Source: Clostridia bacterium
Lineage (GTDB): Bacteria; Bacillota; Clostridia; Christensenellales; Pumilibacteraceae
DNA length: 36,361 nt
Assembly: GCA_017623455.1 (NCBI GenBank)
Contig: JAGAPA010000093.1
Location: forward strand, 1-36,361
Direction of reading: 5' to 3'
The notes beneath the pieces are model-generated. The model was not told where the DNA came from, searched no databases, and saw only the letters and a list, made by a program, of their open reading frames with translations. Position numbers and translations under genes: made by a program. The number at the start of each line of letters is the position of its first letter. Position 1 is the first letter of the stretch. Shown here one piece after another: positions 1 through 20,093 of this stretch.

Positions 1-228
1 CCCAACAACGTGTACAGTCGATGCCGCCGCTGCCGAAATAGTTCGTCTTGTAACTCCATCTACTGCCGCTAAACCCGTAAAAGTGCAATACAATTCCGTT
101 CTCTCGTTTATACGTTTTGAAATTGCTTGTTCATTGATATACAAAGATACGTCATACCTTGCGGCTTCCTCCACTTTTTCCCAATACGCCATAATCCCAT
201 TCATTAAAGGTTTACAAATAAGCTTCAT
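1..228 (-). CDS. Partial FnIII-like module protein, C-terminal end off the window
   Basis: The reading frame starts with ATG at 228, preceded by a good ribosome binding site (TAAGGAG, 231-240), and stays open for 76 codons to the window edge, so the C-terminus is missing. After about 13 residues it enters a module containing A-Y-W-E-K-V-E-E-A-A-R-Y-D-V-S-L-Y, nearly the same signature as in the two genes just upstream. This pattern (Trp, acidic Glu-Glu/Asp-Ala-Ala, Tyr, alternating beta-type residues) resembles the first strands of a fibronectin-III-like fold. It lies 9 bases after the stop of the preceding gene, so it is almost certainly co-transcribed with it. No function can be assigned. 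What is seen is the paralogy; the FnIII assignment is inference. Confidence 0.72.
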   Translation of the reverse strand, partial: MKLICKPLMNGIMAYWEKVEEAARYDVSLYINEQAISKRINERTELYCTFTGLAAVDGVTRRTISAAAASTVHVVG

Positions 229-237
229 TTTTTCTCC

Positions 238-720
238 TTATTTGGCTATCTCTGTGCCAATTACCATTCCTGCAGACTTAGCCACTTCCTCGCCGTCTCT
301 GCCTCTTGCAATAACACGGAAAACATAGCCATCTCCAACAAGGTTCGTTATTGCAGCATAGCCATCATTTCGGCTAACGTGTATTTCTGTTAATTTATAC
401 CATCTCGACACTACGTTTTTATACACTTCAACACAATATTCAGCAGCATCTTCTAACTGTTTCCAATATACATTGAACGTAGTGTTAAATCTTTCAACGT
501 ACACGCCCAAATAATCACCGTTATTTTCTTTACCAAACACACCGGAAAATGATTCCGCAACACTGCCGACTTGCTTTGACACTCGCTGTTGATTTGACGT
601 CAGTTTTTTAATCGCATCTCTTGCCTCGTTAATATTTGAAACTAATGCTCTCACTTCCTCTTTTACTTGATTTATTTCAAACTCAACACCAGCTGTAGGC
701 GATTCTACATATACTTCCAT
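238..720 (-). CDS. Small coiled-coil protein with C-terminal FnIII-like module
   Basis: This 160-aa protein is unrecognised as a family. Residues about 15-60 are rich in charged and heptad-spaced hydrophobic residues (E-I-N-Q-V-K-E-E-V-R-A-L-V) and look like a coiled coil. Residues 84-160 form a module starting V-Y-W-K-Q-L-E-D-A-A-E-Y (Trp86), homologous by eye to the C-terminus of the gene upstream and the N-terminus of the gene downstream. There is no signal peptide or membrane segment. A strong AGGAGG site lies about 11 bases before the ATG at 720. It sits third in a tight minus-strand operon (23 bases after the previous stop, 9 before the next start). A role as an oligomeric adaptor or structural subunit is possible but unproven. 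Confidence 0.8.
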   Translation of the reverse strand: MEVYVESPTAGVEFEINQVKEEVRALVSNINEARDAIKKLTSNQQRVSKQVGSVAESFSGVFGKENNGDYLGVYVERFNTTFNVYWKQLEDAAEYCVEVYKNVVSRWYKLTEIHVSRNDGYAAITNLVGDGYVFRVIARGRDGEEVAKSAGMVIGTEIAK

Positions 721-743
721 ACAATTAATTTCCTCCTATAAAT

Positions 744-1829
744 TCATTCTTTCCAATACTGAACTTTACTTTCTTTTCCTGCAAACTTAATAGCTATTCC
801 CCTGGAAAAAGCTATCGGCATACCGCTTCTGTCCTCTGCAGTTATACGAACTATATAGTTTGTCCCATAAAGATTATCAATAGTTAACCAATGTTTATTT
901 CTGTCTACGTTAAATTCTTCCAGTAGATACAGTTTCTTTTCGATTTTTTCTCCCTCTCTATATTTGTATAAACTAACTTTATACCTTGCGGCATCTTCTA
1001 TTGGTTGCCAATACAAATTACCACTTGTATCCGCATTCTCCCAAAGCGGTGCCAATTTTATTTCGAATAATTCGCTGTCGAAAATATCAAGTTCATTTAT
1101 TCTTTTAGGATAAGTTTCATAAGGCACTTTATATAAAATTCGGGAGCCCGGCACAGAACCACCCATTCGCCTTAGTCTTTCTTCTTCCTCCCTCGGTATA
1201 CTTATTCCGCGACAATAAATTCCTTCCGTTTTATCTCCATATACAGACGTTATTGTACAAAGCTTATAAGCTTTGTTAGGCTGAGGATAAACCTTATCGA
1301 TTTTGTAGCTTCCATCACTCTTACCAGTATGTACAATCATTCCCTCCTTAATCTCATAATCATATATTCTATCGTTTCGATTAAAATCTTCCGGCACCTC
1401 ATACACTTCCTGATCCCAGAATGCCTCATAATTTGACTTTGTATGTTTCACACAGTCAATACTAACCCTTTTAAGTTTAAACAATTCTAACATATTCAAA
1501 TCCACTACTATGTTATTATAATAACTATTATAGTCGCCACAATGTTTTTGGTGAATATATATTTTTTCAAACTTAAAAATATTTGGAGCATCACTTATTG
1601 TTAAAAGCGAAAATTTACTGCCTGTTTTTTCATCTTTACGCTCTATATACAGATCTGTAATATTTATTGTTTTATCTTGTTCTATGGTTCTTCCATAATA
1701 ATAAGGATCCTTACATGATACAGTGCCGGTACAAGATATATTAAAGTCAAACTTCTTAAATCCGGCTCCATCCGTATAATAATAAGAAGTCTTCACATCT
1801 CTTAATCTTACTTTCTTTGCTATTTCCAT
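744..1829 (-). CDS. Unrecognised protein with C-terminal FnIII-like module
   Basis: A 361-aa protein with no family I recognise. Residues 1-180 are rich in Tyr, Ile and Asp with alternating beta-strand character (for example T-I-N-I-T-D-L-Y-I-E-R). Residues about 270-350 carry the module shared with its neighbours: L-Y-W-Q-P-I-E-D-A-A-R-Y-K-V-S-L-Y (Trp274), later Y-I-V-R-I-T-A-E-D-R-S-G. No signal peptide or membrane helix is visible, which argues for a cytoplasmic protein or one exported by a non-Sec route. An AGGAGG site lies 5 bases before the ATG at 1829. It starts 12 bases after the stop of the 319-aa gene, so the two are probably one transcript. The beta-rich N-terminus could be a binding or particle-surface domain; this is speculation. 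Confidence 0.8.
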   Translation of the reverse strand: MEIAKKVRLRDVKTSYYYTDGAGFKKFDFNISCTGTVSCKDPYYYGRTIEQDKTINITDLYIERKDEKTGSKFSLLTISDAPNIFKFEKIYIHQKHCGDYNSYYNNIVVDLNMLELFKLKRVSIDCVKHTKSNYEAFWDQEVYEVPEDFNRNDRIYDYEIKEGMIVHTGKSDGSYKIDKVYPQPNKAYKLCTITSVYGDKTEGIYCRGISIPREEEERLRRMGGSVPGSRILYKVPYETYPKRINELDIFDSELFEIKLAPLWENADTSGNLYWQPIEDAARYKVSLYKYREGEKIEKKLYLLEEFNVDRNKHWLTIDNLYGTNYIVRITAEDRSGMPIAFSRGIAIKFAGKESKVQYWKE

Positions 1830-1841
1830 ATTTTCCTCCTC

Positions 1842-2801
1842 TCAAATACCCAATGGGTTGGTTTGATCTTGTATTGTTTGGTTTATTATTTTAGTGAAAT
1901 AATCGTCATAGTTCCACTCTGCTTCGTCCGTATTTTCTTCGAAAAAAACTACACATAACGAGTCATAAAACACTTGCAGATCTCTTAACGAATTCTCTAT
2001 ATATCCGTCTCCGATTTTTAAATAATACATTGACGGTTCTCCATTGTGATAAGTATTAGTCAACAACATTTCCGGAGACTTCTCCTTTACTTTTTCGAAC
2101 AAATCTTCACTATTATGCTTTAATAAATTATATATTCGAAAAAAGTTATCATACGTCTTATACCCATCTAAATTTTCCACCTTCTCACTACCGTACCGTC
2201 CGTGCAGATAAGTATGCAATTTGCTTCTAGTAACCGCCTTTTCAGAGAACCCAAGATATCTGCATTTTCTTAACATTAAAGAATCCAACGCAACAGCTAT
2301 TTGCATTATGAATTGAGAGCATTGTGCAAGCCAAAGCTTTTGATAAACAAAACTCCGCTTCATGCCTGCCATTAAACCGAGTTCCGTTGCTTCTTCCGCG
2401 TCCGCATATCCGTAACTAAGCAATTCTACCCTTACGTTTTCTGAAACGTCTTTAGGTGTTTTTATTTTAGAAAAAGCATTCTTAAACTCTGCCCATTCTT
2501 TTGCAAGATCAGATAAGGCATCCCTAAATTGGTTAGTAACGTACTCAAAACGCCTTGCTTTCTTAGGATGAAAATACTTGGTATTTCTTGGAATTGCGGA
2601 TGCTTTCTCCAATACGGACTCCGGAACGCCCGTACAACCTATTTTTCTCATGCGTTTTATATCCAACTTGATGCGCTTGCCATCTTTGTGAACACCGTAA
2701 TACCGCATATCATCGCTTGGAAACTTAATACCATTCCACTCGTTTTCGTATTTTGAATAATCATGAACTTTTACTTTTTGTTGCCTGTTTTTCTTTTTCA
2801 T
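1842..2801 (-). CDS. Unrecognised 319-aa protein, possible HEPN-like R-x6-H motif
   Basis: First gene of the left-edge cassette. An upstream in-frame TTG at 2819 is possible, but the ATG at 2801 has the ribosome binding site (AGAGGG, 4 bases away) and lies beyond a terminator hairpin, so 2801 is preferred. The N-terminus is very basic (M-K-K-K-N-R-Q-Q-K-V-K). Residues about 85-185 look strongly helical. Near residues 219-230 is N-F-F-R-I-Y-N-L-L-K-H-N, with Arg222 and His229 in an R-x6-H spacing that falls within the R-x(4-6)-H range of HEPN-type RNases and appears in a similar 'YNxLKHN' setting. That resemblance is weak evidence, and the protein may simply be a helical unknown. It lacks the FnIII-like module of its three downstream partners. 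Confidence 0.8.
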   Translation of the reverse strand: MKKKNRQQKVKVHDYSKYENEWNGIKFPSDDMRYYGVHKDGKRIKLDIKRMRKIGCTGVPESVLEKASAIPRNTKYFHPKKARRFEYVTNQFRDALSDLAKEWAEFKNAFSKIKTPKDVSENVRVELLSYGYADAEEATELGLMAGMKRSFVYQKLWLAQCSQFIMQIAVALDSLMLRKCRYLGFSEKAVTRSKLHTYLHGRYGSEKVENLDGYKTYDNFFRIYNLLKHNSEDLFEKVKEKSPEMLLTNTYHNGEPSMYYLKIGDGYIENSLRDLQVFYDSLCVVFFEENTDEAEWNYDDYFTKIINQTIQDQTNPLGI

Positions 2802-2816
2802 ATTTCCCTCTTTATA

Positions 2817-2842
2817 CAAAAATATCCCGCTGAGCGGGATAT
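2817..2842 (-). terminator. Intrinsic terminator in the cassette leader
   Basis: A perfect 10-bp inverted repeat (ATATCCCGCT and AGCGGGATAT, one-base centre; as RNA a shorter stem with a small loop) is followed on the minus strand by TTTTT. It sits 16 bases before the start codon of the 319-aa gene, so it can end a short leader RNA or act as an attenuator for the operon. Confidence 0.75.
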
Positions 2843-2971
2843 CCTATGCCTGCGCACAAACTTGCACAACATAAAAATTTTAAGCATCCATCACCACTCC
2901 GCATTAAATATGCCATAGGCGAAATCTTCTCGACTGAAAAGATAATTGTTCTTCGTAAAACGATTTTGCTT
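2817..2971 (-). ncRNA. Candidate structured leader or small RNA, about 150 nt
   Basis: The stretch has no convincing ORF. It lies between two sigma-A-like promoters and an intrinsic terminator. On the minus strand it can form UCGU-UUU-ACGA, an 8-bp hairpin (AUCUUUUC/GAGAAGAU with AGUC loop, 2924-2943), a long-range CCUAUG/CAUAGG stem (2914-2919 with 2843-2848) enclosing a GCAU/AUGC hairpin, and the terminator. Transcripts from the upstream promoter also have AAAACGAT paired with AUCGUUUU. The layout fits either an attenuated leader of the 319-aa gene operon or a free small RNA. No known riboswitch class is recognised. Structure was judged by eye. Confidence 0.45.
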
Positions 2972-2977
2972 ATGATA

Positions 2978-3007
2978 AGTATAACATAAAAAAAGCACTT
3001 AACGCAA
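2978..3007 (-). promoter_or_regulatory. Second promoter for the leader RNA
   Basis: On the minus strand TTGCGT (3002-3007) and TATACT (2978-2983) are separated by 18 bp. This would start RNA near 2971, giving a roughly 150-nt product ending at the 2822-2842 hairpin. Confidence 0.5.
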
Positions 3008-3019
3008 TCGTTTTTTGCT

Positions 3020-3048
3020 ATTATATATGATTTTCTTAAATTCGTCAA
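3020..3048 (-). promoter_or_regulatory. Main cassette promoter
   Basis: Minus-strand TTGACG (3043-3048), 17-bp spacer, TATAAT (3020-3025): a near-consensus sigma-A promoter placed directly after the XRE gene terminator and reading into the structured leader and the cassette genes. Confidence 0.75.
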
Positions 3049-3062
3049 TGAACCTGCGGTTC

Positions 3063-3095
3063 AAAAAAAGACTTACTCTATTACGAGCAAGTCTT
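3063..3095 (-). terminator. Terminator overlapping the XRE gene stop
   Basis: AAGACTTGCTC and GAGTAAGTCTT form an 11-bp stem with one G-U pair, followed by a run of seven T on the minus strand. The regulator's stop codon lies inside the 3' arm, so the gene end and terminator are merged. Confidence 0.85.
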
Positions 3096-3300
3096 CGATT
3101 CGAACTCCCAGCATCCAAGAAAGGTGCACCAAATGTTCAAGTTTAGGAAGTTTCTTCCCGTTTGTCCATTCATAGATTACTCTTGGACTTTTTAGTCCAA
3201 GCTCTTCTGCAATCTTTTCTTTGGTAATCTTAGACTTATCAATTGCTTGATAAATTCTATCCCCTGTCAGCTGTTTGTTCAATTTTGGTTTGCAATCCAT
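3073..3300 (-). CDS. XRE/Cro-C1 family transcription regulator
   Basis: A 75-aa stand-alone DNA-binding protein. The ATG at 3300 is chosen because GGAGG lies 7 bases upstream; longer in-frame starts have no such site. The helix-turn-helix covers residues about 22-60 (I-T-K-E-K-I-A-E-E-L-G-L then V-I-Y-E-W-T-N-G-K-K-L-P), the typical Cro/C1 layout, followed by L-V-H-L-S-W-M-L-G-V as helix 5. No sensor or peptidase domain is present. It sits upstream of the leader and the 319-aa gene, and both its own promoter and the cassette promoter use TTGACG/TATAAT with 17-bp spacing, so it plausibly controls itself and the cassette. Small XRE proteins are common in phage, mobile elements and defence or injection islands. 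Confidence 0.88.
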   Translation of the reverse strand: MDCKPKLNKQLTGDRIYQAIDKSKITKEKIAEELGLKSPRVIYEWTNGKKLPKLEHLVHLSWMLGVRIEDLLVIE

Positions 3301-3353
3301 TTTATTACCTCCGTTAATGACCATCGCATTTTCCAAGGTCGGATTGCACTATT

Positions 3354-3382
3354 ATTATATCACATATACACCACGTCGTCAA
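3354..3382 (-). promoter_or_regulatory. Promoter of the XRE regulator
   Basis: Minus-strand TTGACG (3377-3382), 17-bp spacer, TATAAT (3354-3359). The rest of the 3301-3640 stretch between the regulator and the GH4 gene is AT-rich without a convincing gene, and holds only this promoter and two terminators. Confidence 0.75.
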
Positions 3383-3531
3383 TTAATATTTATCCTAACA
3401 TTCAATCTCTCAAATATACTATAAATTATACATCAAAAAAACGCTTATTACAATGTACTAAAAGTTCAAAAACGTTTTCTTATCTCTATACCCCAAGCCC
3501 CTTAACTAAACCCTTATAAACCTATAAAAAA

Positions 3532-3575
3532 GTACGCAAAACACACATACGTATCGTTGTTTTGCGTGCTTTTTG
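3532..3575. terminator. Bidirectional intrinsic terminator
   Basis: GTACGCAAAAC (3532-3542) pairs with GTTTTGCGTGC (3559-3569) with one G-U. It has T-runs on both strands, and it is the second of two tandem terminators after the GH4 gene. Confidence 0.7.
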
Positions 3576-7813: not shown

Positions 7814-8542
7814 ATGAAAATAGAAGGAAGAAACGCTGTTGCCGAGGCGATTAAATCGGGCAAAACCATTGACAGATTGGTTGTCAGCAAAGACGTTAAA
7901 GACGCAGGCGGAAACAGAATTATAGCAGACGCAAAGAGCAGAAACATCAAGATTATGTTCTACGATAAAGCCGTACTTGACAGAGAAAGCGAAAGCAAGC
8001 GTCATCAAGGCTTTATTGCGGAGATAACCGACTACAAATACTCCTCCGTAGAAGAAATCCTCGCTTATGCCGAGGAAAAGGACGAAAAGCCGTTTATTAT
8101 TATAGTGGACGGAGTTGAAGATCCGCATAATCTTGGTAGCATAATAAGAGTTGCGGACTGCGCGGGCTGTCACGGAGTTATTATTCCACGTCACCGTAAC
8201 GTAACCGTAAACGAAACGGTTATCAAGGTTTCGGCAGGCGCTGCAAGCCACGTTAAGGTTGCGAAGGTAACCAACGTTAACGACGCAATAGATTATCTTA
8301 AACAACAAAACGTTTGGGTATACGCTGCAGAGCTTGGCGGAGATGATATTTACAAAGCAAACCTTACGGGAGCTATTGCAATCGTTGTCGGAGGCGAGGG
8401 AAAAGGCGTGAGCAAACTTACCAAACAAAAGTGCGACGGCGTTGTAACCCTTCCCATGCGCGGACAGGTAAACTCGCTTAACGCATCAGTTGCGGCAGGC
8501 ATCGTTGCATACGAATACGTAAGACAGAATTTTGCAAAATAA
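7814..8542 (+). CDS. rlmB: 23S rRNA 2'-O-ribose methyltransferase, TrmH/RlmB family
   Basis: A 242-aa SpoU/TrmH-class methyltransferase (alpha/beta knot) with S-adenosylmethionine as donor. The N-terminal substrate-binding domain (I-E-G-R-N-A-V-A-E-A-I) is followed by the three SpoU motifs: N-L-G-S-I-I-R-V-A-D with its catalytic Arg, V-V-G-G-E-G-K-G-V, and L-P-M-R-G-Q-V-N-S-L-N-A-S-V-A-A. The family member modifies G2251 of 23S rRNA, though assignment of the exact nucleotide is by homology. ATG 7814 is chosen: an upstream in-frame TTG lacks support, and AAGGAA lies about 11 bases before 7814. It has its own promoter and a terminator right after the stop. Confidence 0.93.
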   Translation: MKIEGRNAVAEAIKSGKTIDRLVVSKDVKDAGGNRIIADAKSRNIKIMFYDKAVLDRESESKRHQGFIAEITDYKYSSVEEILAYAEEKDEKPFIIIVDGVEDPHNLGSIIRVADCAGCHGVIIPRHRNVTVNETVIKVSAGAASHVKVAKVTNVNDAIDYLKQQNVWVYAAELGGDDIYKANLTGAIAIVVGGEGKGVSKLTKQKCDGVVTLPMRGQVNSLNASVAAGIVAYEYVRQNFAK

Positions 8543-14149: not shown

Positions 14150-15049
14150 CTACTTTTTAGTCGTTACATAAAAAGGATATGCGTAAGCGTCGTTTACCGC
14201 CTTAATGTATGCATCTGTTTGCTCGCGCGTTACAAAATCGGGGGCATAGGAAAGCTCGTCTACGTTTACATCGAAAATCTCTTTTACCCACATGAGCGAA
14301 GCGAGAAATCTTCCGTTTTCGTTAAGGTGAATGTCGTCACGGTTGAGAGTTTCGCCCACCAAAACTCTTGCGTTTTGCACCGCAGTTCCCGTGGGTATAA
14401 CGTAAGATATTTCGTAGTCGGTATCAATTCGGGTGGAAACAACCGAGCAAATCTTGCCGTACATGGTGTCCTGATCGTTGTTAAAATCCGCAAACTGCGG
14501 GCTTTTGCTGTAAGTAGGGTAAGCCCAAGTCATATTAAAACCAAACTTTGCGTTTGGACAAACGCTTCTCACGTATGCCTTGAGTTGGTCAAAAAACGGC
14601 ACATACGTACTCCACTTTCCTGTCTTTGCCGACTGTTGCTGAAAGATTATCAAATCCCAATCCTCATCCTCAAGTCCTTCTAAAATCGAGGTGTTTGGAG
14701 TAGTTACCCATTCTCCGTTTGCATTTTTGCGGTAGTCGTACACTTTATCTCCGCTAACCGCATTATTCCTATGCATTTCGAGCGAGCATCCACCTATATA
14801 AAGGTTTGCAATAACTACGTTCTTTATTCCAAGATTTTCTGCGACGTCGCGAATGTACTTTACGCTGTCATCACCATAACTGTTTCCTATACATAGTATT
14901 TTCTTACCCTCAAAAGGTTCTCTTTCCGTCTTTTTAGCCATATACACATTGTCCCCCTTTTCTTCCTCGCCGTTCTTTTTGGTATACACGACGACACACG
15001 TGATGATAACCATCACCAACAAAACCAAACCTATATATAATACTTGCAT
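14150..15049 (-). CDS. Membrane-anchored DUF4886 SGNH-like hydrolase
   Basis: A 299-aa protein. ATG 15049 is chosen because AAGGAG lies 5 bases upstream. The first 20 residues form a single transmembrane or signal-anchor helix (V-L-Y-I-G-L-V-L-L-V-M-V-I-I). The rest matches the DUF4886 fold related to SGNH/GDSL esterases: block I L-C-I-G-N-S-Y-G (Ser nucleophile), then L-I-I-F-Q-Q-Q-S, and R-D-D-I-H-L-N-E-N-G carrying the Asp/His of block V. Such proteins often deacetylate polysaccharides or sit in polysaccharide-use loci. It is expected to act outside the membrane. It is first in an operon with the glycosidase gene and divergent from cysK. Confidence 0.85.
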   Translation of the reverse strand: MQVLYIGLVLLVMVIITCVVVYTKKNGEEEKGDNVYMAKKTEREPFEGKKILCIGNSYGDDSVKYIRDVAENLGIKNVVIANLYIGGCSLEMHRNNAVSGDKVYDYRKNANGEWVTTPNTSILEGLEDEDWDLIIFQQQSAKTGKWSTYVPFFDQLKAYVRSVCPNAKFGFNMTWAYPTYSKSPQFADFNNDQDTMYGKICSVVSTRIDTDYEISYVIPTGTAVQNARVLVGETLNRDDIHLNENGRFLASLMWVKEIFDVNVDELSYAPDFVTREQTDAYIKAVNDAYAYPFYVTTKK

Positions 15050-15067
15050 TACGTTCTCCTTGTTTTT

Positions 15068-15096
15068 AATATACCATATAAAAATCAATTTAGCAA
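15068..15096 (-). promoter_or_regulatory. Promoter of the DUF4886-glycosidase operon
   Basis: Minus-strand TTGCTA (15091-15096), 17-bp spacer, TATATT (15068-15073). Confidence 0.7.
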
Positions 15097-15111
15097 GTAC
15101 TTAAAAAGAAA

Positions 15112-15140
15112 TTGACTTTTTTTAAGGAAAATACTACAAT
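15112..15140 (+). promoter_or_regulatory. Promoter of the cysK operon
   Basis: TTGACT (15112-15117), 17 bp, TACAAT (15135-15140), 30 bases before the cysK start. It lies back to back with the minus-strand promoter at 15068-15096. Confidence 0.72.
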
Positions 15141-15170
15141 ATAAACATAAGATTATTACGAGGTTATTTT

Positions 15171-16079
15171 ATGAAGATCTACGATTCTTTAACTCAGCTT
15201 ATCGGAAACACCCCTCTTATCAAGCTTAGCTCGCTCTCCCTAAACGGAAGCGACGTTATTGCAAAAGCGGAATGTTTTAATCCGTATTCGGTAAAAGACA
15301 GAGTTGCGTACAAAATGCTTACCTCCGCCTTAAACTGCGGAATAATCGACAAGAACACAGTTATAATCGAGCCTACCAGCGGTAATACCGGTATCGGGCT
15401 TGCTTTTTGCTGTGCGTCAATGGGTATGAAATGTATTCTTACTATGCCGTCGTCTATGAGCGAAGAACGCAAAAAACTGCTTTCTGCCCTTGGCGCGGAA
15501 CTTGTTCTTACCGATCCTAAAAGCGGTATGCAAGGCGCAATAGATATGGCAAACGAGCTTAAAGCCAAGCTTCCCTCCGCTTTTATTCCTCAGCAGTTTG
15601 AAAACGAAAGCAATCCCCTCGCGCACGAAAGCACCGCAAACGAAATACTTACCGACACGGACGGAAAAATAGATTATTTCGTTTCTTGCATTGGTACGGG
15701 CGGAACGATTTCGGGCGTGGGAAAAATTCTTAAAGAGCGTTTACCCTCCGTTAAGATCGTAGGCATAGAGCCTTACGACAGTCCGCTTATCACAAAGGGT
15801 GTTGCAGGTCCGCATAAAATTCAAGGAATTGGCGCAAACTTTATTCCCAAAACCTTTGACAAAAGCGTTGTAGATGAAATAGTTACAATAAAGACTGAAG
15901 ACGCATACGCTACGAGCAGAGAGGTTGCAAAGAAGGAAGGATTTTTGGTGGGGATATCATCAGGCTCCGCATTGTTTATCGCAAGCGAGATTGCAAAACG
16001 CGAGAGCGGAAAACGAATCGTTGCGCTATGTCCGGACAGTGGCGAAAGATACTTATCTACTGAACTTTTTGGAGAATAA
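15171..16079 (+). CDS. cysK: Cysteine synthase (O-acetylserine sulfhydrylase)
   Basis: A 302-aa PLP enzyme of fold type II that makes cysteine from O-acetylserine and sulfide. The PLP lysine is in N-P-Y-S-V-K-D-R-V (Lys near residue 42). T-S-G-N-T-G-I-G-L-A-F binds substrate, and G-T-G-G-T-I-S-G-V-G-K binds the PLP phosphate. The usual N-P-G-G-S-V-K-D-R is N-P-Y-S-V-K-D-R here, a mild variation. The start is supported by a GAGG site and the promoter at 15112. It leads a four-gene cluster with a YgjV-like membrane protein (3 bases after), ProX-like deacylase and asparaginase, suggesting an amino-acid housekeeping role. Confidence 0.95.
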   Translation: MKIYDSLTQLIGNTPLIKLSSLSLNGSDVIAKAECFNPYSVKDRVAYKMLTSALNCGIIDKNTVIIEPTSGNTGIGLAFCCASMGMKCILTMPSSMSEERKKLLSALGAELVLTDPKSGMQGAIDMANELKAKLPSAFIPQQFENESNPLAHESTANEILTDTDGKIDYFVSCIGTGGTISGVGKILKERLPSVKIVGIEPYDSPLITKGVAGPHKIQGIGANFIPKTFDKSVVDEIVTIKTEDAYATSREVAKKEGFLVGISSGSALFIASEIAKRESGKRIVALCPDSGERYLSTELFGE

Positions 16080-16082
16080 AAC

Positions 16083-16640
16083 ATGATACTAGAAATTATA
16101 GGACAGGCTATAGGCATAGTAGCGATGGCTTTTAACGTGCTTTCCTTTCAGGCAAAAAACAGTAAAGGTATTATCTTATTCCAATTTTTTGGCGGAATGT
16201 TCTTTTCTATAAACTTTTTGCTAATTGGCTCGTATATCGGTGCAATGCTTAATTTTTTGGGCATGCTACGTGCTCTCTTCTTTGCTTTTAGGGACAAATG
16301 GCATATAAGCAAAACCTTGTTAACCGCGGTATTTTGCGTACTTTTCGTAAGCACGTATCCGATACTCTTTACTGTTTTTAGTAAACCGTTTAACGCTTTT
16401 AACGCCATACTAGAAATAATTCCAGTTTGCTCTATGATATTAAGCACGTTCGCGTACGGCGTAGAAGCAAAGAAATTTAGAATTTTGGCGCTGATATATT
16501 CGCCGATGTGGTTAGCGTATAATATCGTAGTATTCTCGATTGGCGCAATAATTAGCGAAACGCTATGCATAATCTCGGCAGTCGTGGCGCTTATAAGATA
16601 TAAAAGGAAAGAAAATAATGTACAAAATAATAACGGGTAG
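16083..16640 (+). CDS. YgjV-family integral membrane protein
   Basis: A 185-aa protein of the bacterial inner-membrane YgjV family. It has about six hydrophobic segments, starting with I-I-G-Q-A-I-G-I-V-A-M-A and including F-F-G-G-M-F-F-S-I-N-F-L-L-I-G, a phrase characteristic of this family, and a short basic C-terminal tail (R-Y-K-R-K-E). Its function is not established in general. It starts 3 bases after cysK and overlaps the next gene by 23 bases, so its translation is tied to both. The context suggests, but does not show, a link to amino-acid metabolism. Confidence 0.85.
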   Translation: MILEIIGQAIGIVAMAFNVLSFQAKNSKGIILFQFFGGMFFSINFLLIGSYIGAMLNFLGMLRALFFAFRDKWHISKTLLTAVFCVLFVSTYPILFTVFSKPFNAFNAILEIIPVCSMILSTFAYGVEAKKFRILALIYSPMWLAYNIVVFSIGAIISETLCIISAVVALIRYKRKENNVQNNNG

Positions 16641-17151
16641 ACCAACTGATAAAAGAGAAGAGAAAGAAGAACGCATATACGACTTTTTAGACGCGATTGG
16701 CGTATCTTACGAAAGGGTTGACCACGAGGCGCTTTTTACCATTGAAGCATGTCAAAAAGTAGACGAGATTTTGGGATTTGAGATTTGCAAAAATTTGTTT
16801 TTAGTAAACAGCAACAAGTCGCAGTTCTACCTCCTTCTTATGATGCCAAATAAAAACCTTTCCACAAAGGACTTAAAAGTTCAAATAAACTCCTCCCGAC
16901 TTTCGTTTGGTACGGCGGACTTGCTTTTACAAACGCTTAATCTAACGGCGGGAAGCGTTAACGTTTGCTCGCTTTTATACGATATAGATAACAAAGTAAA
17001 ACTGCTTATAGACGAGGATATCTTAAAGCAAGAATACTTCGGTTTTCATCCTATGCTCAATACGTCCACGCTAAAAGTAAACACACACGACTTTGTGGAC
17101 ACAATTATCCCCGCGCTAAAGCACGAGCCTACTATCGTCAAAATTCCCTAA
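16618..17151 (+). CDS. Prolyl-tRNA deacylase (ProX/YbaK-like trans-editing factor)
   Basis: A 177-aa trans-editing protein, homologous to YbaK/ProX, that hydrolyses Ala or Cys from mischarged tRNA-Pro. The N-terminal Y-E-R-V-D-H-E and F-T-I-E-A-C lead into a YbaK fold. The C-terminal G-F-H-P-M-L-N-T-S-T resembles the family's G-x-H-P-x-x-N-T active-site loop. K-N-L-F-L-V-N (about 59-65) is the other typical motif. It overlaps the upstream membrane protein by 23 bases, with an AAGGAAAG site before the ATG. Placing it beside cysteine synthase is sensible because cysteine can be mischarged onto tRNA-Pro; this is inference. Confidence 0.88.
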   Translation: MYKIITGRPTDKREEKEERIYDFLDAIGVSYERVDHEALFTIEACQKVDEILGFEICKNLFLVNSNKSQFYLLLMMPNKNLSTKDLKVQINSSRLSFGTADLLLQTLNLTAGSVNVCSLLYDIDNKVKLLIDEDILKQEYFGFHPMLNTSTLKVNTHDFVDTIIPALKHEPTIVKIP

Positions 17152-17161
17152 AGGAGGGCTT

Positions 17162-18160
17162 ATGAAAATTCTATTCGTTTTTACGGGAGGCACGATTTCC
17201 ACCACGCTAAAAGACAGCGTACTGAAAGTGGACGAGAGTAAGCCTTATGCTTTGATAAGGGCGTACGAGGATCGGTTTGGCATAGATTTTGAGTACGATT
17301 GCATTTCGCCGTACCTTGAACTGAGCGAAAACAACACGGGCAAGCACTTAGACGAACTTTGTGCTTGCGTAAAAAACAACACGCAAAAGGACTACGACGG
17401 AATTATCGTAACGCACGGCACGGATACGTTACAGTATTCAGCCTGCGCGCTTGCATACGTTTTAGGAAACAATTGCATTCCCGTATGCCTAGTTTCCGCA
17501 GCCTTTCCCCTAGACGACAGCAAAAGCAACGCTTTAGTTAATCTTCACGGTGCTGTAATGATGATAAAAAACAAACTTGGCAAAGGCGTTTTCGTACCCT
17601 ACAAAAACGCAGGCGAGGACGAAATAGTTATTCATAGAGGTACGCGACTACTACCTTCTCTTCCGTTTTCTAGCGAATTAAAGAGTGTTAAAAATCAGGA
17701 ATACGGTCGTTTTGTCCGCGGTAAAAAGAGTGATTACAACTTCCTAAAAAACGGAATAACCGAACGCGAGGATATTGCCTTGCCGTTTACTCCGCGCTTT
17801 TCCCTCGCATCTTCCGTCCTATTGCTTAACGCTCACCCGGGCATGATTTACCCCGAATTATCGCAAAAAGTCAAATACGTATTGATTTCTTCTTACCATT
17901 CAGGCACGATAGATACGAAATCTACCGAGGCAAGGGCGTTTTATTTAAGAGCGTGGGAAAGAGGAATTAAGGTATACGTGTCGGGCGTAAAAAACGGGGA
18001 TATATACGAAAGCGCAACAGAGTTTTCTAACCTTAATATAATCACACTTAACCTCTCGCCAATATCCGCGTATATCAAGATTTGGCTTATGGCAAACTCT
18101 AATACTCATCAAGACAGCGTTTTACAACCGCTTGGTGGCGACACGGTTACAAACTACTAA
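17162..18160 (+). CDS. ansA: L-asparaginase (type I-like)
   Basis: A 332-aa amidohydrolase of the bacterial asparaginase family that converts asparagine to aspartate and ammonia. The first catalytic Thr is in F-V-F-T-G-G-T-I-S (about Thr12). The second, in I-V-T-H-G-T-D-T, holds the Thr-Asp pair. The central A-F-P-L-D-D-S-K-S and G-T-I-D-T-K-S segments are usual in family members. There is no signal peptide, so it is cytoplasmic and probably the catabolic or housekeeping form. A strong AAAGGAGG site lies 4-6 bases upstream, and it ends the operon at a terminator. A related glutaminase activity cannot be excluded. Confidence 0.93.
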   Translation: MKILFVFTGGTISTTLKDSVLKVDESKPYALIRAYEDRFGIDFEYDCISPYLELSENNTGKHLDELCACVKNNTQKDYDGIIVTHGTDTLQYSACALAYVLGNNCIPVCLVSAAFPLDDSKSNALVNLHGAVMMIKNKLGKGVFVPYKNAGEDEIVIHRGTRLLPSLPFSSELKSVKNQEYGRFVRGKKSDYNFLKNGITEREDIALPFTPRFSLASSVLLLNAHPGMIYPELSQKVKYVLISSYHSGTIDTKSTEARAFYLRAWERGIKVYVSGVKNGDIYESATEFSNLNIITLNLSPISAYIKIWLMANSNTHQDSVLQPLGGDTVTNY

Positions 18161-18167
18161 AAAAACA

Positions 18168-18205
18168 GCACACTATACTTTTTTCAAGTACGGTGTGCAT
18201 ATTTT
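18168..18205. terminator. Bidirectional terminator after the asparaginase gene
   Basis: GCACAC/GTGTGC (18168-18173, 18193-18198) with an inner TACTT/AAGTA stem across a small internal loop, followed by a T-run on the plus strand. Convergent with the GDPD gene. Confidence 0.75.
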
Positions 18206-19234
18206 TTATTTGGTATATTCGTTGTAAACTTCTTTTAATAGATGCGGATAGTCGGTCATTATTCCGTCCGCGCCAATGGAAATAAGATAACGCATATCGT
18301 CGGGATTGTTTATCGTCCAGTAGTGAACTGCCAGATTATGCGCGTGCGCCTTTGCCACAAATTCTTTGGTTGCAAGGTTTATGCCGTATTCTTCCATAGG
18401 AAGCTGGAACACGCTCATTTTATCGGCAAAGAACAGGTCGAGCTGTAAGCAATGCAGTATATAAAACTTTACCACTCCGCCTATTCCGGGCGAGCACATA
18501 AATTCTTTTGGTAAGCTTCCGTCGTTCTGCCTTGCTTGATACAAATCATACAGCTCGTCGTGAAAGGACGCGAGCACCACTCTGTCGAACGCGTCGTACT
18601 TTTCGAGCAATTTTACCGTTGCCTCAAACGCCTTTTTACCAAGCTCGCCTTCCTGCTTTATCTCAACGTTAATGCGATTGTAGGGAAAGGAAACGAGTAA
18701 ATCCTCCAAGGTCGTCGCAAGGAATTTGGTAGCGTGTCGTGGCTCGACGCCTTCGGGGTAGAGCACGTCGTGAGGAGTGACTTCCACTCCGTCGGGATTG
18801 GTAAATCTTTTTCTCTCACCGCTCAGTTGCTGATTGCCGTCCGTGGGGTTTGTATACGAAAAATCCACTTCCATTGCAATAAGATCGGTATAATTCCATT
18901 CGGAAATCTCGCCTACGTTATCGGTTTTTCGGTCAATCGTGGTATCGTGCGAAAGCAGAATTACCCCATCCTTGGTAATACTGACGTCAGTTTCCATCAT
19001 TACGTTTTCGTCCACGCTATACGCATTATAAAACGCCTCGAGCGTATTATCGGGAAATTCCCTATTACCTCCGCCGTGAGCGATGAGAATGGGAAGCTTG
19101 CCGTCCTTTCTCATCGGATTAGCACCTTTATGATTTATATTTTTAGGCACGAACGCAATAACCAGATACGCAACTAACACTACGAGCAATACAGAGCATA
19201 ATATTATTAAAAAATTACGTTTTTTTGCTTCCAT
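18206..19234 (-). CDS. Membrane-anchored glycerophosphodiester phosphodiesterase
   Basis: A 342-aa GDPD-family enzyme (TIM barrel, Ca or Mg dependent) that splits glycerophosphodiesters to glycerol 3-phosphate and an alcohol. An N-terminal membrane anchor (about 8-30, I-I-L-C-S-V-L-L-V-V-L-V-A) precedes I-A-H-G-G-G-N-R-E-F-P-D-N-T-L-E-A-F, containing the catalytic His. The second half of the site is M-E-T-D-V-S-I-T-K-D-G and L-L-S-H-D-T. A C-terminal W-T-I-N-N-P-D-D-M near G-A-D-G-I-M-T-D-Y-P is typical. It acts outside the membrane, possibly on teichoic acid or lipid-derived diesters. It begins 1 base after the AraC gene stop, with the AAAGGA site inside that gene, so translation is coupled. 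Confidence 0.93.
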   Translation of the reverse strand: MEAKKRNFLIILCSVLLVVLVAYLVIAFVPKNINHKGANPMRKDGKLPILIAHGGGNREFPDNTLEAFYNAYSVDENVMMETDVSITKDGVILLSHDTTIDRKTDNVGEISEWNYTDLIAMEVDFSYTNPTDGNQQLSGERKRFTNPDGVEVTPHDVLYPEGVEPRHATKFLATTLEDLLVSFPYNRINVEIKQEGELGKKAFEATVKLLEKYDAFDRVVLASFHDELYDLYQARQNDGSLPKEFMCSPGIGGVVKFYILHCLQLDLFFADKMSVFQLPMEEYGINLATKEFVAKAHAHNLAVHYWTINNPDDMRYLISIGADGIMTDYPHLLKEVYNEYTK

Positions 19235-19235
19235 T

Positions 19236-20093
19236 TCAGTTTCCTTTATTTGTATTTTTATGCTTTTTGCGGTAACAAGAAGGCGTTAACGCGTATTCCT
19301 TTTCGAATATATCGTAAAAGTTTTTCTTATCCTTATATCCTACCTCACGCATAATCTTTTCGACGGGCATATCGGTGTGCGCAAGCATTTGCGCGGCAAG
19401 TGAAATGCGTTTTTTACGGATGAGGACAGACAGGTCTTCGCCTGTAAACTTCTTGTACATTTTGCTAACGTAAGAGGGCGAGAAGAAAATCGCATCACTT
19501 ATTTTTTCCACACTTATATCTCCGCTCGTAGCAGACGAGATCATTCGGTTTATTTCGTCCACCAAAAAACGATTGGACGCAACGCCCACGTACGAATTTC
19601 GGCAAAACAGAGTCAGTACTATGGTAAGGTATGAACACAAAACCTGAACGTATCCGTCACTTTTACCCTCATACTCCTCTTTCATATCTAAAAGAAGCTT
19701 CGCTATCTGCTTAGAATTTTTGGCTTTGACTATAGGGTAAGGAATGGACGATGAAACGGAGTCTGTAAAAATTTTTACCGCAAAATCCCCAAAATCCGTT
19801 CCGTCAAAACTAATCCGTTCCAAAAACGATGGAGGGAAAAGACAGTTGAGTATAACGCAATCTCCTTCTGTTTTTAAATAATAATGAGGAGTGTTCATAT
19901 CAACGATAAACACGTCGCCCTTCTTTACGTGCGTGCTTTCGTTTTTTACGACGTGTTCCACCTTACCCTCAAGCACAAGCACAAGCTCCATAAACTCATG
20001 CGAATGCTCTTTGCTTGAAAATGGGCTGTAATCCACGCGCATTGTTATGCCCTCGTTGATATTTATGTAATTGTCCGACAGCAAAGTATTCAT
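19236..20093 (-). CDS. AraC-family regulator, possibly leaderless
   Basis: A 285-aa regulator. An N-terminal cupin (E-H-S-H-E-F-M-E-L-V-L-V-L-E-G and K-K-G-D-V-F-I-V-D) is followed by two helix-turn-helix motifs in the C-terminal third (I-S-V-E-K-I-S-D-A-I-F-F-S-P-S-Y-V-S and V-E-K-I-M-R-E-V-G-Y-K-D-K-K-N-F) ending L-T-P-S-C-Y-R-K-K-H. The ATG at 20093 lies only 6 bases after a TATACT box, which suggests a leaderless start. An alternative GTG at 20111 would overlap the promoter but has AGGG upstream. It is co-transcribed with the downstream glycerophosphodiesterase, the likely target of local control. Confidence 0.88.
   Translation of the reverse strand: MNTLLSDNYININEGITMRVDYSPFSSKEHSHEFMELVLVLEGKVEHVVKNESTHVKKGDVFIVDMNTPHYYLKTEGDCVILNCLFPPSFLERISFDGTDFGDFAVKIFTDSVSSSIPYPIVKAKNSKQIAKLLLDMKEEYEGKSDGYVQVLCSYLTIVLTLFCRNSYVGVASNRFLVDEINRMISSATSGDISVEKISDAIFFSPSYVSKMYKKFTGEDLSVLIRKKRISLAAQMLAHTDMPVEKIMREVGYKDKKNFYDIFEKEYALTPSCYRKKHKNTNKGN

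What the first reader, a model, noticed from the sequence alone, without database searches (positions are those of the whole stretch)
1..3382. Accessory cassette with three paralogous FnIII-like module proteins under an XRE regulator
Three consecutive genes (the last cut at the window edge) end or begin with the same module: W-x2-[LIV]-E-[DE]-A-A-x-Y-x-V-x-[LV]-Y. Their other parts are unlike each other (a beta-rich 270-aa region, a coiled coil, and a very short N-terminus). A 319-aa unrelated protein leads them and a small XRE regulator precedes the unit. No phage structural gene, nuclease or toxin family is recognisable. A set of proteins sharing one module with different attachments suggests subunits that assemble together, such as a particle, surface or defence assembly. 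This is the best candidate in the window for an undescribed system.
Basis: partly seen in the sequence, partly recalled or inferred. Interest (0 to 1): 0.7.

Follow-up and report, generated by a model that had tools for sequence, protein, structure and literature searches.

The report
Mobile operon with FnIII recognition proteins
The three look-alike proteins are the front half of a mobile bacterial operon whose back half, on another contig, encodes a ring-forming ATPase and a radical enzyme; the set may help the cell recognise invaders, and no description of it was found in the papers searched.

Summary
In detail: three consecutive genes share a fibronectin-III (FnIII) module, behind a 319-aa protein and an XRE regulator. 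The window start is a contig break: its first 141 bases equal the end of contig C23, and a sister genome carries both flanks on one contig. The operon continues: end of FnIII-C, Ycf46-like AAA+ ATPase, coiled-coil protein with a degenerate PLD-like domain, DUF1257-like, DUF2997, radical-SAM enzyme. The low-GC unit (about 8.8 kb) is replaced by another insert in the sister species. Among 80 loci with a related AAA, five have the complete set with FnIII genes and one is cut. The module was found only beside this core. In one tandem array the N-terminal domains change faster than the modules. On the AAA tree this 'type I' operon lies inside a clade with helicase plus wHTH-effector operons ('type II'), some beside BREX, McrBC-like or Hhe-type genes. 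Best reading: FnIII proteins are exchangeable recognition/adaptor subunits of an AAA+/radical-SAM conflict system. The helicase-effector half of type II resembles CoCoNuT CnuH-CnuE.

The parts
3073..3300 (-). XRE-type regulator, 75 aa
   Evidence: Pfam HTH_3 E 5.9e-7, over its cut-off
1842..2801 (-). 319-aa leading protein, no known family; homologues only before the FnIII genes of L086, L087, L088
   Evidence: 34-35% identity; 3 loci; nothing in Pfam, PADLOC, NCBIfam, PHROGs
744..1829 (-). FnIII-A, 361 aa: beta-rich N-terminal region, FnIII module at about 774-1043
   Evidence: motif 966-1010; profile match
238..720 (-). FnIII-B, 160 aa: helical N-terminal half, FnIII module at about 244-498
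   Evidence: motif 421-465; profile match
1..228 (-). FnIII-C, first 76 of 116 codons; ends in contig C23
   Evidence: motif 139-183; joined frame; orthologue of 117 aa in L086, 139 bits
1..141 (.). assembly overlap with the end of contig C23; the rest of the operon lies there (L007: AAA+ 18080-19675, coiled coil 16223-18076, DUF1257-like 15461-16219, DUF2997 15258-15461, radical SAM 14678-15265, all -)
   Evidence: flanks on one contig in the sister genome
3498..3498 (.). right edge of the replaceable segment (left edge L007:14464); about 8.8 kb in all
   Evidence: similarity to the sister genome G733 starts here
3526..3574 (.). palindromic element at the edge of the segment, two copies at the edges of the sister genome's insert

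Best explanation
The FnIII proteins are cytosolic, exchangeable recognition or adaptor subunits of a mobile AAA+/radical-SAM operon, most likely a conflict (anti-phage or anti-element) system. Proposed working: the FnIII module is the constant part that docks on the shared core (AAA+ ring; coiled-coil protein with a dead PLD-like domain); the differing N-terminal parts (beta-rich, helical, or almost none) meet the target; the AAA+ ring remodels or threads the bound target; the DUF2997 protein, whose Gly-x-x-Cys is almost invariant, is substrate or redox partner of the radical-SAM enzyme and arms or gates the machine; the XRE protein keeps the unit silent. Shown here: gene set, order, linkage, replacement at one site, recurrence in distant lineages, AAA descent within helicase-bearing operons, constant/variable contrast in one array. 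Inferred: docking, recognition, remodelling, the radical-SAM substrate, and defence as the purpose.
For: Operon continuity and order; FnIII fold by profile; FnIII genes directly before the AAA gene in six of the 80 loci; module found in 1 of 398 genomes of the phylum, the window's own, and in 6 of 8 genomes reached through relatives, 20 matches, all on the contig of the core; dN/dS of N-domains 0.55-1.12 against 0.19-0.59 of modules, higher in 10 of 10 pairs of five copies; type I is one clade next to helicase-bearing L093 and L092; AAA C-terminal NPF in 7 of 8 type I and 17 of 20 type II rows, 3 of 103 others; type II neighbours BrxC and PglX (L108), PDC-S37/Hhe type (L109), McrB-like and DUF2357/PDDEXK_7 (L093); exchangeable effector in type II, NYN RNase in L113; 1 of 74 genomes of the family has the AAA; GC 0.35-0.36 against 0.42-0.44.
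Against: No defence assay exists, and no defence gene was found beside the type I loci that I looked at. The same AAA/DUF2997/radical-SAM combination also sits in viral contigs and plasmids, so the core need not be defensive. L090 has the core without any FnIII gene, so FnIII is not essential to the core. Six of ten type II neighbours scanned matched no defence model at 1e-20. The dN/dS contrast rests on one locus, five copies and dependent pairs, and gene conversion of the modules was not excluded. FnIII binding to AAA is untested.
Confidence: 0.45

Rival explanations
1. A non-defensive AAA+ remodelling or proteostasis unit with Fe-S chemistry, akin to the Ycf46/DUF1257/DUF2997 genes of cyanobacteria; the FnIII proteins are adaptors for the cell's own proteins or for stress.
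For: Cyanobacterial DUF2997 and DUF1257 (ycf35) genes cluster with a ferredoxin (PMC4284462, one passage) and in Pseudanabaena with Hsp70, GrpE and AAA; AAA domain closest to CDC48/p97.
Against: Patchy, mobile distribution: 1 of 74 family genomes; low-GC replaceable segment; sits within the clade of helicase/effector operons.
Confidence: 0.2
2. A gene set of mobile elements themselves (maintenance, counter-defence or host takeover), of which the chromosomal copy is a remnant or passenger.
For: AAA relatives in 1513 plasmid records, 127 phage records with part of the protein and 31 viral contigs, some with DUF2997 and radical SAM; integrase pieces near L086 (by eye).
Against: Close FnIII/AAA relatives were not found in plasmid or phage records; no phage, plasmid or transposase gene between the XRE gene and the radical-SAM gene.
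Confidence: 0.2
3. Subunits of a particle, surface layer or contractile injection device.
For: Several paralogous FnIII proteins; in a Treponema plasmid a related AAA and a 4Fe-4S gene lie among VgrG/Pvc8 and baseplate-V genes.
Against: No tail, sheath, tube or surface family in the unit; highest 19-residue hydropathy of the FnIII proteins 0.93 and no signal-like N-terminus by eye.
Confidence: 0.07

Closest known systems
CoCoNuT CnuH-CnuE pair (PMC11090510; passages, outline, section 9 part 1 and section 10 seen)
   Same: Type II relatives carry a UPF1-like SF1 helicase followed by a protein with an exchangeable nuclease-like C-terminus; [quoted passage not shown]
   Different: No McrB-type CnuB or McrC-type CnuC in the core; AAA+, DUF2997, DUF1257-like and radical SAM instead (radical SAM does not occur in that paper). 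The window's type I operon lacks the helicase and effector altogether
Mokosh type I (PADLOC models; names as in PADLOC, design recalled)
   Same: The type II helicases match the MkoA model best (E 3.3e-76 and 9.2e-82)
   Different: No MkoB match at E 0.01 in the other type II proteins scanned; window operon has no helicase
Ycf46 / DUF1257 (ycf35) / DUF2997 genes of cyanobacteria and plasmids
   Same: AAA family, DUF2997 and DUF1257-like partners
   Different: Coiled-coil protein, FnIII cassette and the C-terminal NPF of the AAA are missing or rare there
IetAS (PADLOC IetA; partner recalled as a subtilisin-like protease)
   Same: AAA domain match E 4.9e-30 over residues 255-495
   Different: No protease in the operon
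PFNA operon of bifidobacteria (PMC8430577; only the listing seen)
   Same: An FN3 protein and, as recalled, an AAA ATPase in one operon
   Different: As recalled: kinase, DUF58 and transglutaminase partners; none here

Membership tests
FnIII domain | profile similarity to solved FnIII domains | tested here: met
   by name most of the 60 chains shown are FnIII domains, a few are cadherins or others
FnIII domain | single sequence over Pfam fn3 gathering score | tested here: not met
   14.6 bits against 25 for FnIII-A; 2 of 14 members match at all
FnIII domain | seven-strand beta sandwich | not testable with these tools
   structure prediction switched off
DUF2997 | match over Pfam cut-off | tested here: met
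   28.9 bits, cut-off 24.1
DUF1257 | match to the family | tested here: inconclusive
   no Pfam match of the 252-aa protein; C-terminus aligns with two annotated DUF1257 proteins
radical SAM activase | CxxxCxxC cluster motif | tested here: met
   sequence; 54 of 55 family ORFs
CoCoNuT | McrB-like GTPase (CnuB) with McrC (CnuC) | tested here: not met
   no such Pfam match in the window operon
CoCoNuT | UPF1-like helicase CnuH in types II and III | tested here: not met
   helicase profile does not hit the window, L007, L086-L091 or L095
Mokosh | MkoA helicase with MkoB PLD protein | tested here: not met
   window operon has neither; type II has MkoA-like only
IetAS | subtilisin-like IetS beside IetA | tested here: not met
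   no peptidase match in the operon
phage tail / contractile injection / S-layer | structural protein families | tested here: not met
   one weak tape-measure match of FnIII-B, E 0.0027
HEPN RNase (319-aa protein) | conserved R-x4-6-H | tested here: not met
   the Arg before KHN in the window protein is Leu in L086 and L087; no Pfam match
PLD nuclease (coiled-coil protein) | H-x-K-x4-D | tested here: not met
   pattern H-x-K-x4-[DE] in 2 of 29 family ORFs, though the N-terminus matches NucT at E 2.2e-4
anti-phage defence system | protection from phage | not testable with these tools
   needs experiment

The most novel reading that the evidence does not exclude
A prokaryotic intracellular recognition repertoire built on FnIII: a constant FnIII module docks a diversifying set of N-terminal recognition domains, expandable in tandem, onto a radical-SAM-licensed AAA+ machine that replaced the helicase-nuclease effector of an ancestral defence operon.
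Probability: 0.25. Interest if true: 0.9.

Novelty: new variant of a known kind. Interest (0 to 1): 0.66.

Why it matters
DUF2997 and DUF1257 are families without a known function. A compact mobile operon that ties them to an AAA+ ring, a radical-SAM enzyme and either a helicase-effector pair or a variable FnIII cassette makes their role testable in laboratory strains. If the constant/variable reading is right, it would be an unusual case of FnIII, known mostly from outside cells, used as a cytosolic scaffold for target recognition in bacteria.

Tried and rejected
Known families: Pfam, PADLOC, NCBIfam and PHROGs give no convincing family for the 319-aa and FnIII proteins. Viral-contig scans with the 617-aa and 319-aa proteins found nothing; the genome scan with FnIII-A found nothing. 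PDB profile searches with the 319-aa family (A2), the wHTH/PLD-like family (A3) and full-length FnIII-A proteins (A1) gave nothing convincing. HEPN for the 319-aa protein was considered from its KHN motif and dropped. Mokosh, IetAS and CoCoNuT membership each fail a defining feature. My simple gene caller failed in the GC-rich loci L039 and L040; there stop-to-stop ORFs and profile hits were used.

Weak points of my own tests. The defence-neighbour comparison set 81 flank proteins from 13 type II or helicase-bearing loci (14 taken, L113 gave none) against 81 control proteins chosen by hand out of 158, mostly longer ones, with L073, L080 and L082 left out; matched families were 149 against 27 at E 1e-15, but PADLOC models overlap and these are not counts of genes, so only proteins named are relied on. 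In the AAA tree 128 of 130 rows were used (length limits; L095, cut, is out), L090 was labelled type I by hand although it has no FnIII gene, rows are stop-to-stop ORFs, and FastTree gives no bootstrap. The N-terminal likeness of the window's FnIII-A to L089 and L095 rests on an alignment with 22-31% identity; single-sequence matches cover residues 240-346 in L089 and 175-361 in L095. dN/dS used five copies of L089, two of them halves of one ORF.
Full report
Observation. The window's - strand carries XRE (3073-3300), a 319-aa protein (1842-2801) and three FnIII-module proteins: A (361 aa, 744-1829), B (160 aa, 238-720) and C, open at base 1. From the 319-aa gene on, the gaps are 12, 23 and 9 bases; XRE lies 271 bases upstream (from the coordinates).

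The window ends at an assembly break, not at the operon's end. Bases 1-141 equal the last 141 bases of contig C23, and no third place was found in the genome. The frame of C runs on into C23 to give 116 aa, the size of a complete orthologue (117 aa in L086, 139 bits over residues 1-116). Independent support: in a sister species of the same genus (G733) the genes on either side, a GH4-like gene (98% identical) and a metallophosphatase (84%), lie on one contig about 5 kb apart. DNA similarity to that contig ends at window 3498 on one side and at L007:14464 on the other. Between these points the window's genome has a unit of about 8.8 kb; G733 has a different insert of about 4.65 kb with a 1035-aa repeat protein and two HTH genes that look XRE-like by eye. 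GC of the unit is 0.353 and 0.357 in its two parts, against 0.436 and 0.418 of the flanks.

The rest of the operon, in order: AAA+ ATPase of 531 aa (Pfam AAA E 4.2e-32; best PDB relatives CDC48/p97; whole-length match to a phage family of unknown function, phrog_8638); a 617-aa protein; a 252-aa protein whose C-terminus aligns with DUF1257 proteins (no Pfam match of its own); a 67-aa DUF2997 protein (28.9 bits, cut-off 24.1); a 195-aa radical-SAM protein of the NrdG/activase kind (Fer4_12 E 6e-33). A profile of the 617-aa protein and its type II relatives matches the PLD nuclease NucT at its N-terminus (E 2.2e-4) and Rad50 coiled coil further on. H-x-K-x4-[DE] occurs in 2 of 29 family ORFs, so the PLD-like domain is probably not catalytic.

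Recurrence. Profiles give, among these 80 loci: AAA 80, DUF2997 55, DUF1257-like 50, radical SAM 44, helicase 30, coiled coil 24, wHTH/PLD-like 19, FnIII 6, 319-aa 3; many loci are cut, so these are minima. Type I (FnIII genes, AAA, coiled coil, DUF1257-like, DUF2997, radical SAM) is complete in 5: L086, L087, L088, L089, L091. L095 has four FnIII ORFs and is cut inside AAA; L090 has the core without FnIII genes. Their records are named Clostridia, Caccovivens, Bacilli and a Planctomycetota MAG, while 1 of 74 genomes of the window's family, its own, has the AAA at E 1e-150, and the 617-aa protein is found in 1 of 297 genomes of the order.

The FnIII module was met only beside this core. At E 1e-5 it is found in 1 of 398 genomes of the phylum, the window's own, three times. 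In 8 genomes reached through relatives it gives 20 matches in 6, all on the contig of the core; the genomes of L090 and of type II L093 have none. Plasmid and phage records gave no match to an FnIII-A protein. Solved-structure profiles place the module among FnIII domains. The attachments differ: a beta-rich region of about 250 aa (FnIII-A and the proteins of L089 and L095; the likeness is weak), a helical stretch (B), or almost nothing (C).

Constant and variable parts. L089 holds seven FnIII modules in a run before its AAA gene. For five copies with both parts, dN/dS of the N-domain is 0.55-1.12 and of the module 0.19-0.59; the N-domain is higher in 10 of 10 pairs, which share copies and are not independent. 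A constant docking module with diversifying recognition domains would give this. Gene conversion of the modules is an untested alternative.

Relation to other operons. Eighteen of the 80 loci carry a complete type II set: AAA, SF1 UPF1-like helicase, wHTH/PLD-like protein, coiled coil, DUF2997, DUF1257-like, radical SAM, in archaea, Bacillus, Pseudomonas, Helicobacter, Planctomycetota, Myxococcales and others. The third protein has H-[DTQGE]-R-[YFHW] in 14 of 20 ORFs (half-PLD reading and wHTH reading are mine, by eye) and in L113 a Zc3h12a-like NYN RNase instead (E 4.8e-17), so its effector part looks exchangeable. On the AAA tree type I is one clade (7 rows, local support 100); its nearest rows are helicase-bearing L093 and L092; both lie in a clade of 42 rows (support 98) that holds all 19 type II rows of the tree. 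The AAA's C-terminal NPF occurs in 7 of 8 type I and 17 of 20 type II rows and in 3 of 103 others (the type I miss, L095, is cut). Type I therefore most likely lost helicase and effector and gained the FnIII cassette. Type II neighbours include BrxC and PglX (L108), a PDC-S37/Hhe-type protein (L109) and a weak LmuA match (L100), and McrB-like plus DUF2357/PDDEXK_7 genes (L093). Six of the ten neighbours scanned matched nothing at 1e-20.

Against a purely defensive core: AAA relatives occur in 1513 plasmid records, 127 phage records (none over 80% of the protein) and 31 viral contigs, several of the last with DUF2997 and radical SAM.

Chemistry. The radical-SAM motifs are kept (CxxxCxxC 54 of 55, GGEP 55 of 55 ORFs), and the DUF2997 protein keeps GxxC in 76 of 77 and GxxGxxC in 74 of 77 ORFs. 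A tiny protein with a near-invariant Gly and Cys beside an activase-type radical-SAM gene suggests substrate or redox partner; in Synechocystis and kin a ferredoxin gene clusters with DUF2997 and DUF1257 genes (PMC4284462, one passage). This is inference.

Prior description. Three held papers use DUF2997 or DUF1257, none about defence by title or abstract start. Searches joining radical SAM with AAA, helicase, phospholipase D and Ycf46, with FnIII and AAA, or with Mokosh and AAA found none; one search listed 8 of 419 papers and none of these concerned such an operon. The CoCoNuT paper (PMC11090510; passages, outline, section 9 part 1, section 10) describes the UPF1-like helicase CnuH, typically followed by a wHTH-effector, CnuE, which fits that half of type II, and a SpoVK-like AAA in some Type III-A operons; radical SAM does not occur in its text. 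The library lacks most subscription papers, so absence here is not absence in print.

Verdict. A real, recurring, mobile operon. FnIII identity and linkage to the AAA+/radical-SAM core are well supported; its role as the recognition cassette of a conflict system is the best but unproven reading.

Noticed in passing
window 3526-3574; L182:3822-3869 and 8491-8539; L007 about 14560-14620: A palindromic element with centre ATACGTAT borders the replaceable segment in both genomes (89.8% and 89.6% alike; the L007 one is only related, by eye); three places in the window's own genome match it. Terminator or a recombination site?
   Followed up: partly
L182:3887-8480: At the same site the sister species G733 carries another insert: a 1035-aa repeat protein and two XRE-like genes.
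   Followed up: no
L113:3334-4992: The type II wHTH/PLD-like protein has its C-terminus replaced by a Zc3h12a-like NYN RNase domain, E 4.8e-17: effector swapping.
   Followed up: partly
L021 (Treponema succinifaciens plasmid pTRESU01): A related AAA (46% identical) and a 4Fe-4S gene lie among VgrG/Pvc8 and baseplate-V genes.
   Followed up: no
L025 (Citrobacter plasmid typed IncA): More distant AAA with DUF2997 in IncA-type plasmids; AAA relatives in 1513 plasmid records.
   Followed up: no
L041, L042, L044, L045, L066 (IMG/VR contigs): Viral contigs that carry AAA, DUF2997 and radical SAM together.
   Followed up: no
L089:1361-2466: One copy of the tandem array is in two overlapping ORFs, an N-domain without module (262 aa) and a module without N-domain (106 aa); it may be a split gene.
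   Followed up: no
L086:6-7500: Upstream of this type I operon lie an Hsp70-like gene (E 5.2e-58) and another AAA gene (E 4.7e-30), and integrase-like pieces by eye.
   Followed up: partly
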